From Prauserella alba (lineage in GTDB: Bacteria; Actinomycetota; Actinomycetes; Mycobacteriales; Pseudonocardiaceae), in NCBI RefSeq assembly GCF_024171735.1, contig NZ_JAMTCH010000006.1, forward strand, positions 62,001-126,000: 64,000 bases of DNA. The letters run 5' to 3'. The translations under genes and the position numbers were made by a program. Position 1 is the first letter of the stretch. Every line of letters starts with the position of its first letter. The notes under the pieces are model-generated. The model made no database searches. It had not been told where the DNA came from and saw only the letters and a program-made list of their open reading frames with translations. Positions 45,367 through 46,458 of this stretch are shown here, in pieces.

Positions 45367-46458
45367 ATGAGGACACGTACCACCCGGTGGGCGGTGGGAG
45401 CCCTGTCGGCTTTCGCCGTCACCGCGGGGATGCTCGCACCGGTGCAGGCGACGGCGGACGTGCCTGCCGGTTACTACGACGCCGCCGAAGGCCTGTCCGG
45501 CGGCGAACTGAAGAGCGCACTCAACGACATCATCAGCGACAGCACTCAGCTGTCGTACGACGAGGTGTGGGACGCGCTCAAGGCGAGCGACGAGGACCCG
45601 AACAACGGGAACAACGTCGTCCTGCTCTACAGCGGCGAGTCCCGGAGCAAGGACGCCAACGGAGGCGGCAGCGGCGACTGGAACCGCGAGCACGTCTGGG
45701 CCAAGTCGCACGGCGACTTCGGCACATCCGGCCCCGGCGCCGACGCGCACCACCTCCGTCCGACGGACGTGCAGGTCAACAGCGCCCGCGGCAACAAGGA
45801 CTTCGACAACGGCGGCAGCGAGGTCGACGGTGCACCCGGCAACTTCACCGACGACGACTCGTACGAACCGCGCGACGAGGTCAAGGGCGACGTCGCCCGC
45901 ATGATCTTCTACATGGCGGTGCGCTACGAGGGCGAGGACGGCGCTCCGGATCTCGAGCTCAACGACGAGGTCGACAACGGGTCGCAGCCCCTGATGGGAC
46001 GCAGTTCCGTGCTACTCGACTGGCACGCCGCCGACCCGGTGAGCGACATGGAACGCCGACGCAACGACGTCATCTACGAACAGTTCCAGAACAACCGGAA
46101 CCCGTTCATCGACCACCCCGAGTGGGCGGGCGAGATCTTCGGTGACGGTTCCACTCCCACCCCCGAACCGGAGCCGGAGCCGGAGCCCGACCCGGGCTGC
46201 GGCGAGGCGACGGGCCTGGAGACCGTGGGACTGTCGTCGCTTCCCTCGGACGCACAGGGGATCATCGAGGACGTCCGCAACGGCCGGACCGGTGAGACCT
46301 ACGAGAACCGCGAAGGCGTTCTGCCGGACTGCGAGGACGGCTATTACCAGCTGTTCCACGTCGGCTACGAGGACCGCGTGATCGCCGGTGACGGCGGCGA
46401 GTTCTACTACACGCCGGACTACTACGAGACGTTCCAGTCGGTGAATCTCGACTCCTGA
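45367..46458 (+). CDS. Secreted endonuclease I fused to an RNase Sa-like domain
   Basis: 363 residues. Signal peptide (about 1-30, ending ATA-DVPAG). Endonuclease I domain (about 35-250): catalytic beta-beta-alpha-metal motif DWNREHVWAKSHG (H109), DAHHLRPTDVQVNSARGNK, and SVLLDWHAADPVSDMERRRN. A Pro-Glu repeat linker (PEPEPEPEPDP) follows. The last 85 residues match the guanyl-specific RNase fold of Streptomyces RNase Sa: SSLPSDA, NREGVLP (N314-R315-E316 for guanine binding), GYYQLFHV, DRVIAG (R337) and YYTPDYYETF. The RNase Sa catalytic Glu54 is Leu329 and His85 is Tyr352, so RNA cleavage by the normal mechanism is unlikely. Probably a secreted DNase with a guanine- or nucleic-acid-binding module. 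Confidence 0.88.
   Translation: MRTRTTRWAVGALSAFAVTAGMLAPVQATADVPAGYYDAAEGLSGGELKSALNDIISDSTQLSYDEVWDALKASDEDPNNGNNVVLLYSGESRSKDANGGGSGDWNREHVWAKSHGDFGTSGPGADAHHLRPTDVQVNSARGNKDFDNGGSEVDGAPGNFTDDDSYEPRDEVKGDVARMIFYMAVRYEGEDGAPDLELNDEVDNGSQPLMGRSSVLLDWHAADPVSDMERRRNDVIYEQFQNNRNPFIDHPEWAGEIFGDGSTPTPEPEPEPEPDPGCGEATGLETVGLSSLPSDAQGIIEDVRNGRTGETYENREGVLPDCEDGYYQLFHVGYEDRVIAGDGGEFYYTPDYYETFQSVNLDS

What the first reader, a model, noticed from the sequence alone, without database searches (positions are those of the whole stretch)
45367..46458. Secreted endonuclease I fused to a catalytically disarmed RNase Sa-like domain
Seen: signal peptide, complete endonuclease I motifs, a Pro-Glu linker, then about 85 residues aligning without gaps at key blocks to Streptomyces RNase Sa (NRExVLP, GYY, RxIxG, YYTxDxY.TF). 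The guanine-site residues and R337 (Arg69) are kept, while the catalytic Glu54 and His85 positions are Leu329 and Tyr352. Known: RNase Sa needs Glu54 and His85. Inference: the domain has become a guanine- or nucleic-acid-recognition module tethered to a DNase, or H331 nearby substitutes. A DNase-pseudoRNase fusion of this kind is not one I recognise as described.
Basis: partly seen in the sequence, partly recalled or inferred. Interest (0 to 1): 0.75.

Follow-up and report, generated by a model that had tools for sequence, protein, structure and literature searches.

The report
Nuclease carrying a dead RNase domain
A secreted bacterial nuclease carries at its tail an RNase domain that has lost its cutting residues but kept its guanine-reading loop, a module related to the silent second half of two-part RNases in neighbouring soil bacteria.

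Summary
ORF 45367-46458 (+, 363 aa) is a secreted endonuclease I (PF04231), then a Pro-Glu linker and an RNase Sa-like domain (PF00545 above cut-off; the only confident fold matches are RNase Sa2/Sa3/Sa). Glu54 is Leu329, His85 is Tyr352; two loops are shortened, one with Arg65. Arg69 and the guanine loop YENREGVLP remain. The silencing seems older than this fusion: the same domain is the second half of a two-domain secreted RNase found in Amycolatopsis, Actinophytocola and Prauserella. In 80 of 80 distinct such proteins domain 1 keeps Glu54/Arg65/Arg69/His85 and domain 2 lacks Glu54. The silent domains form one clade. In 86 of them the guanine loop is the most conserved 9-column window (1 of 81 as low); in 80 active domains it is ordinary (29 of 98). 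The fusion was seen only in Prauserella (6 of 7 genomes), probably arose once and was lost in P. rugosa. Best reading: a non-cutting guanine/nucleic-acid-binding module tethering a nuclease to substrate. Binding, inactivity and the endonuclease's substrate (DNA, RNA or both) are untested.

The parts
45367..46458 (+). whole ORF, 363 aa plus stop: secreted endonuclease I with C-terminal pseudo-RNase domain
45367..45456 (+). signal peptide, residues 1-30 (by eye; cleavage site not computed)
   Evidence: sequence; similar N-terminus in the fused orthologues
45499..46122 (+). Endonuclease I catalytic domain, residues 45-252
   Evidence: PF04231 E 4.2e-42; fold match to Vvn and V. cholerae endonuclease I
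45679..45696 (+). W-N-R-E-H-V block, residues 105-110; Arg107, Glu108, His109 invariant in 45 aligned sequences (active-site role recalled from Vvn)
46144..46197 (+). Pro/Glu-rich linker, residues 260-277
   Evidence: length varies among orthologues
46198..46455 (+). pseudo-RNase Sa domain, residues 278-363
   Evidence: PF00545; Foldseek ranks 1-19 all RNase Sa2/Sa3/Sa at prob 1.00
46300..46326 (+). guanine-recognition loop YENREGVLP, residues 312-320 (RNase Sa 37-45)
46351..46353 (+). Leu329 at the place of catalytic Glu54
46375..46377 (+). Arg337 at the place of Arg69, Arg in 86 of 86 silent domains (80 tandem, 6 fused)
46420..46422 (+). Tyr352 at the place of catalytic His85

Best explanation
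A secreted endonuclease I-type nuclease whose C-terminal domain is a pseudoenzyme sharing descent with the silent second half of a two-domain RNase Sa-type RNase. Proposed working: the pseudo-RNase, on a flexible Pro-Glu tether, holds a guanine base (in RNA or exposed guanines of DNA) in the retained loop with Arg69 and Tyr86 on the phosphate side, does not cut, and so keeps the endonuclease I domain close to its substrate, as a carbohydrate-binding module does for a glycosidase. Shown by computation: domain identity, predicted fold, loss of Glu54 and of the Arg65 loop, retention and exceptional conservation of the guanine loop, common descent with tandem second domains, one clade of fused domains. 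Inferred: loss of RNase activity, guanine/nucleic-acid binding, benefit to the nuclease.
For: Pfam and PDB sequence hits. The domain model matches RNase Sa2/Sa3/Sa (ranks 1-19, prob 1.00, TM 0.62-0.68; rank 20 has E 1.7); the full-length model matches Vvn-type structures and RNase Sa2 in separate parts. Residue tally: tandem domain 1 E54/R65/R69/H85 80 of 80; tandem domain 2 E54 0 of 80 (Leu 79, Phe 1), R69 80, N39 80, R40 79, E41 80, H85 41 of 80 (Arg 37, Lys 1, Asp 1); fusions Leu 6 of 6. The guanine loop is the most conserved 9-column window in 86 silent domains (entropy 0.154 against 1.061; 1 of 81 windows, 6 of 20000 random column sets as low) but not in 80 active domains (29 of 98; 5360 of 20000). 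Median pairwise dN/dS: fusions 0.27, Amycolatopsis domain 2 0.43, domain 1 0.35. Silent domains one group 100/97; fused ones 100/98. Precedent: the T1-fold pseudo-RNase CSEP0064/BEC1054 binds RNA weakly (passages of PMC6464244).
Against: No binding or activity data. P. rugosa has the nuclease without the domain, so it is dispensable there. Within the six fusions alone the loop signal is weaker (3 of 81 windows, 632 of 20000 sets). The fused domains are strongly acidic (median net charge -15), which does not favour nucleic-acid binding, though Amycolatopsis domain 2 is about neutral (+1) and the active Prauserella domain 1 is as acidic (-18). Two loops near the active site are cut away, which may weaken binding. 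The domain model has only pLDDT 66 from two sequences, and the C-terminus of the full-length model is lower still. dN/dS is higher in silent than in active domains in all three genera.
Confidence: 0.55

Rival explanations
1. The module binds a free guanine nucleotide (for example GMP, GTP or a nucleotide signal) and acts as a regulatory or scavenging site, not as a tether to a polymer.
For: What is conserved is the base-reading loop plus Arg69 (86 of 86) and mostly Tyr86, enough for a mononucleotide; two neighbouring loops are shortened. RNase Sa2 structures with mononucleotides exist (titles).
Against: In the loci fetched it sits next to a nuclease domain (active-looking RNase 80 of 80, endonuclease I 6 of 6), which fits a polymer substrate better. 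Nothing shows a free-nucleotide role.
Confidence: 0.17
2. The domain is a passive spacer, stability partner or protein-binding surface that merely kept its fold.
For: Absent from P. rugosa with the rest of the locus collinear; dN/dS higher than in the active partner.
Against: Conservation is focused on the guanine loop, far above the rest of the domain and above the active partner's own loop; Leu at 54 is itself nearly fixed (85 of 86).
Confidence: 0.17
3. The domain still cleaves RNA with other residues (His331 in the fusions, or Arg69 with His85 where kept).
For: His331 lies two residues along the same strand and is His in 6 of 6 fusions; His85 is kept in 41 of 80 tandem second domains and 1 of 6 fusions.
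Against: No general base is conserved across the clade: place 56 is His in 1 of 80 tandem second domains; His85 is Arg, Lys, Asp, Tyr or Leu in the rest; the Arg65 loop is shortened in 80 of 86.
Confidence: 0.07
4. The domain is a decoy that titrates a barstar-type inhibitor, sparing active RNases.
For: Barstar (PF01337) matches occur in 7 of 7 genus genomes; that barstar binds RNase active sites is recalled.
Against: In each genome a barstar gene lies beside another, membrane-anchored RNase and is presumably intracellular, whereas this protein has a signal peptide.
Confidence: 0.04

Closest known systems
RNase Sa / Sa2 / Sa3 (guanyl-specific RNases, PF00545, N1/T1 superfamily)
   Same: Sequence (39% identity to RNase Sa over aligned places, 38% to the genome's own RNase), predicted fold, guanine loop, Arg69, Tyr86.
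   Different: No Glu54, no Arg65, two shortened loops, His85 mostly lost; cysteines at the N-terminus of the domain and in LPxC, unlike the terminal pair recalled for RNase Sa; part of a larger protein.
Endonuclease I family (PF04231: Vvn, EndA; Bacillus extracellular nuclease Bsn/YurI, family membership recalled)
   Same: Whole catalytic domain, invariant R-E-H block, secretion signal, fold match to Vvn.
   Different: Extra C-terminal module; 0 of the 79 other loci kept besides P. halophila (best 80 of 579) has it (tails read).
Tandem RNase Sa + silent RNase Sa proteins of Amycolatopsis, Actinophytocola and Prauserella
   Same: Their second domain is the same module (63-67% identity to the window domain within Prauserella; one clade).
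   Different: There the partner is an active-looking RNase Sa domain. I saw no description of these in print (listings).
RALPH effectors of powdery mildews (CSEP0064/BEC1054)
   Same: T1-type RNase fold without the catalytic triad; binds RNA weakly (PMC6464244, passages; PMC7857584, passages).
   Different: Fungal, acts in plant cells, not tethered to a nuclease; independent loss of catalysis is inferred, not tested.

Membership tests
Endonuclease I (PF04231) | profile match over the whole domain | tested here: met
   145 bits, cut-off 25, residues 45-252
Endonuclease I (PF04231) | active-site residues (R-E-H block, metal-site Asn; roles recalled from Vvn) | tested here: met
   R107, E108, H109, N138 invariant in 45 aligned sequences
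Endonuclease I (PF04231) | metal-dependent cleavage of DNA and/or RNA | not testable with these tools
   needs purified protein
RNase Sa / N1-T1 RNase (PF00545) | profile match and fold | tested here: met
   30.8 bits for the domain, cut-off 24; Foldseek prob 1.00 to RNase Sa2
RNase Sa / N1-T1 RNase (PF00545) | guanine loop N39-R40-E41 | tested here: met
   N314-R315-E316; 6 of 6 fusions
RNase Sa / N1-T1 RNase (PF00545) | catalytic Glu54 | tested here: not met
   Leu329; Leu in 6 of 6 fusions
RNase Sa / N1-T1 RNase (PF00545) | catalytic His85 | tested here: not met
   Tyr352; one of six fusions has His
RNase Sa / N1-T1 RNase (PF00545) | Arg65 and Arg69 | tested here: not met
   Arg69 kept; Arg65 missing with its loop in 6 of 6 fusions
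RNase toxin with immunity gene (barnase-barstar type) | barstar gene beside the RNase gene | tested here: not met
   the one barstar match of this genome is on contig C1 beside another RNase, the window gene is on C4; neighbours of the window ORF look like an ABC transporter and a TetR-type gene (by eye)
RALPH pseudo-RNase effectors | common descent with fungal T1/F1 RNases | not tested
   no fungal sequence was in the tree; the best matches found are bacterial RNase Sa types

The most novel reading that the evidence does not exclude
An RNase that duplicated itself, kept one copy as the cutter and turned the other into a dedicated guanine-reading, non-cutting arm, kept across at least three genera; the arm then moved as a stand-alone nucleic-acid-binding module onto an unrelated secreted nuclease, giving a guanine-guided scavenging nuclease. 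This would be the nuclease counterpart of carbohydrate-binding modules, with a visible intermediate (Actinophytocola: Glu54 lost, loops still full length).
Probability: 0.42. Interest if true: 0.7.

Novelty: new variant of a known kind. Interest (0 to 1): 0.52.

Why it matters
RNase Sa and barnase are model proteins whose catalysis and guanine recognition have been dissected residue by residue (recalled), so a natural, conserved, catalytically silent version lets one ask directly what recognition without cutting is good for. The tandem proteins give 80 natural pairs of live-looking and silent domains in one chain, and the Prauserella fusion shows the silent one persisting beside an unrelated nuclease. 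If binding is shown, it is a small ready-made guanine-binding module and a clear case of a pseudoenzyme becoming a substrate-binding domain.

Tried and rejected
Considered and set aside: sequencing error or frameshift (five orthologous fusions agree); mobile-element origin (viral scan: 73 pattern matches, none a relative; plasmids: 2 records with weak RNase Sa-like hits at 32-34%; flanks collinear with P. rugosa); toxin-immunity pair. A tblastn of the domain against 400 bases around and after the end of the P. rugosa nuclease gene gave one 11-residue antisense hit, E 0.078, taken as chance.

Literature: ten searches, seen as capped listings with abstract starts; most were uninformative (one search matched 13,901 papers, 10 listed; one search found none). 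The kinetic paper on RNase Sa active-site mutants was not held, so the need for Glu54 in RNase Sa rests on recall; His85's catalytic and Tyr86's binding role are in PMC2716378 (passages). That Bsn/YurI belongs to the endonuclease I family is recalled; PMC2777011 (one table passage) and PMC6469844 (passages) only say that RNase Bsn is encoded by yurI and is extracellular. PMC6196983 and PMC4278273 were looked at in passages and not used.

Limits and dropped rows. Two L208 ORFs shared one name, so the single-domain tally printed as 34 is 33 distinct rows (all Glu54 and His85). The domain tree used 27 of 70 Amycolatopsis proteins and left out L148 and L150; it has few columns (106) and a midpoint root. 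One search left one fused row (L083) untrimmed. The conservation tests do not correct for relatedness. The names for genera g11 and g6 rest on shared coordinates with three named records (A. roodepoortensis, A. thailandensis, Actinophytocola xinjiangensis), not on a label for each genome. The match lists were cut, and of the weaker matches in other genera only seven places were fetched (all single-domain), so tandem or fused forms elsewhere are not excluded. Ten of 80 g11 genomes had only weaker matches and were not fetched.

Full report
What is there. The ORF at 45367-46458 (+) encodes 363 residues. Pfam gives Endonuclease_1 over residues 45-252 (E 4.2e-42) and Ribonuclease over 280-359 (26.9 bits, cut-off 24; 30.8 bits when the C-terminus is scanned alone). 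Against PDB sequences the C-terminus matches RNase Sa2 (E 5.1e-8), Sa3, Sa and, weakly, barnase.

Structure. A model of residues 271-363 from two sequences has mean pLDDT 66. Foldseek against the PDB returns RNase Sa2, Sa3 and Sa at ranks 1-19, all probability 1.00, TM 0.62-0.68; rank 20 has E 1.7. A full-length model (45 sequences, pLDDT 70.8, low in the linker and C-terminal domain) returns Vibrio endonuclease I structures for one part and RNase Sa types for the other.

Residues. Leu329 replaces Glu54, Tyr352 replaces His85, Arg337 is Arg69. Between RNase Sa 57 and 69 there are 4 residues instead of 11, so Arg65 is gone, and the stretch around Tyr30 is missing too. The guanine loop YENREGVLP is intact.

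Where the domain is found. Besides the fusion, four of the seven genus genomes hold a second protein with a signal-like N-terminus and two RNase Sa-like domains in a row; its second domain is 63-67% identical to the window domain. A profile of ten such domains (A1) searched in 390 genomes of the family led to the same tandem protein in 70 of 80 genomes of one genus and 6 of 6 of another; shared coordinates with named records identify these as Amycolatopsis and Actinophytocola. Seven other family places fetched were single-domain. In an even sample of the phylum 17 of 396 genomes had a match, the window's own included; the 18 loci from the other 16 genomes are single-domain RNases with Glu54 and His85 kept.

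The pattern. Of 80 distinct tandem proteins, the first domain keeps Glu54, Arg65, Arg69 and His85 in 80. The second domain has Leu (79) or Phe (1) at 54; Arg69 80, Asn39 80, Arg40 79, Glu41 80, Tyr86 78; His85 41, otherwise Arg 37, Lys 1, Asp 1. The loop with Arg65 is shortened in 74 of 80 (70 Amycolatopsis, 4 Prauserella) and full length in the 6 Actinophytocola, which look like an earlier stage. The six distinct fusions share Leu54 and the short loop; place 85 is Tyr 4, His 1, Leu 1. The 33 distinct single-domain rows keep both Glu54 and His85.

Conservation. In 86 silent domains the nine columns of the guanine loop have mean entropy 0.154 against 1.061 elsewhere; 1 of 81 nine-column windows (itself) and 6 of 20000 random column sets are as low. 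In the 80 active first domains the same loop is unremarkable (0.526 against 0.692; 29 of 98 windows, 5360 of 20000). In the six fusions alone the signal is weaker (3 of 81; 632 of 20000). These tests do not correct for relatedness; the first domains, from the same proteins, are the control. Median pairwise dN/dS (pairs with dS 0.1-1.5) is 0.27 for the fused domains; second against first domains: Amycolatopsis 0.43 and 0.35, Actinophytocola 0.39 and 0.31, Prauserella 0.25 and 0.16. So all are under purifying selection on average, the silent ones somewhat less.

History. In a tree of 112 domains the 43 silent ones form one group (100/97) and the six fused ones one group inside it (100/98); the next fork (88/85) joins them with the four Prauserella second domains and three Amycolatopsis ones. 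The endonuclease tree puts unfused P. rugosa with fused G006 (100/94), so one capture and one loss is the simplest account, given that the fused domains are one clade. P. rugosa is collinear with the window on both sides of the gene and lacks the 3' module; no credible remnant. Of the 80 best endonuclease loci kept, P. halophila has the domain and 0 of the other 79 do. In 386 family genomes 206 had a match to the full protein; the listed matches that reach the query's C-terminus from the nuclease part are the six Prauserella ones (list cut).

Context. A coaD-like gene (PF01467) lies directly upstream of the tandem gene in L154 and L166 (Amycolatopsis), and about 460 bases upstream in L202 (Actinophytocola); L213, a single-domain RNase of another genus, also has one beside it; these four are the only ones scanned for it. 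L167 and L168 showed no such ORF under my filter and were not scanned. An rsmD-like gene (PF03602) was confirmed in L154 and a YceD gene in L202; DivIVA matches were below the cut-off. This suggests an old chromosomal position. Each of the 7 genus genomes carries a barstar beside a third, membrane-anchored RNase; G002 has a second, weaker barstar match.

Mechanism proposed. A silent RNase domain that reads guanine and holds the phosphate with Arg69, Tyr86 and, in many tandem proteins, Arg at place 85, tethered to an active nuclease. The replacement of His85 by Arg in 37 of 80 second domains fits phosphate binding without catalysis (inference). An RNA-binding, non-cutting T1-fold protein is known in powdery mildew (PMC6464244, passages). 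Binding, inactivity and benefit are not shown. Whether the endonuclease cuts DNA, RNA or both is open: the family contains enzymes acting on either (recalled), and RNase Bsn of B. subtilis, recalled as a member, is an extracellular RNase (PMC6469844, passages).

Novelty. The listings showed no description of such proteins; the library lacks most subscription papers. The parts are known families; the conserved live/silent pairing and its appearance on endonuclease I are, as far as I could see, new.

Noticed in passing
L002:1378-1800 and 1803-2183 (G000:C1, about 818.5-819.4 kb): An RNase Sa-like protein with an N-terminal hydrophobic stretch and all catalytic residues, directly followed by a barstar gene; RNase and barstar lie side by side in 7 of 7 genus genomes.
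   Followed up: partly
L154, L166, L202, L213: The tandem (or, in L213, single-domain) RNase gene has a coaD-like gene upstream in the four loci scanned, across three genera.
   Followed up: partly
G000 and G002: These two genomes have the endonuclease fusion but no tandem RNase match, so the silent domain seems to have outlived its parent protein there.
   Followed up: no
L219, L223: RNase Sa-like matches in P. flavalba and Actinokineospora enzanensis records run across one in-frame TGA; perhaps only the match passing the natural stop.
   Followed up: no
L201-L206 (Actinophytocola): Second domains with Glu54 already Leu (6 of 6) but full-length loops: a likely evolutionary intermediate.
   Followed up: partly
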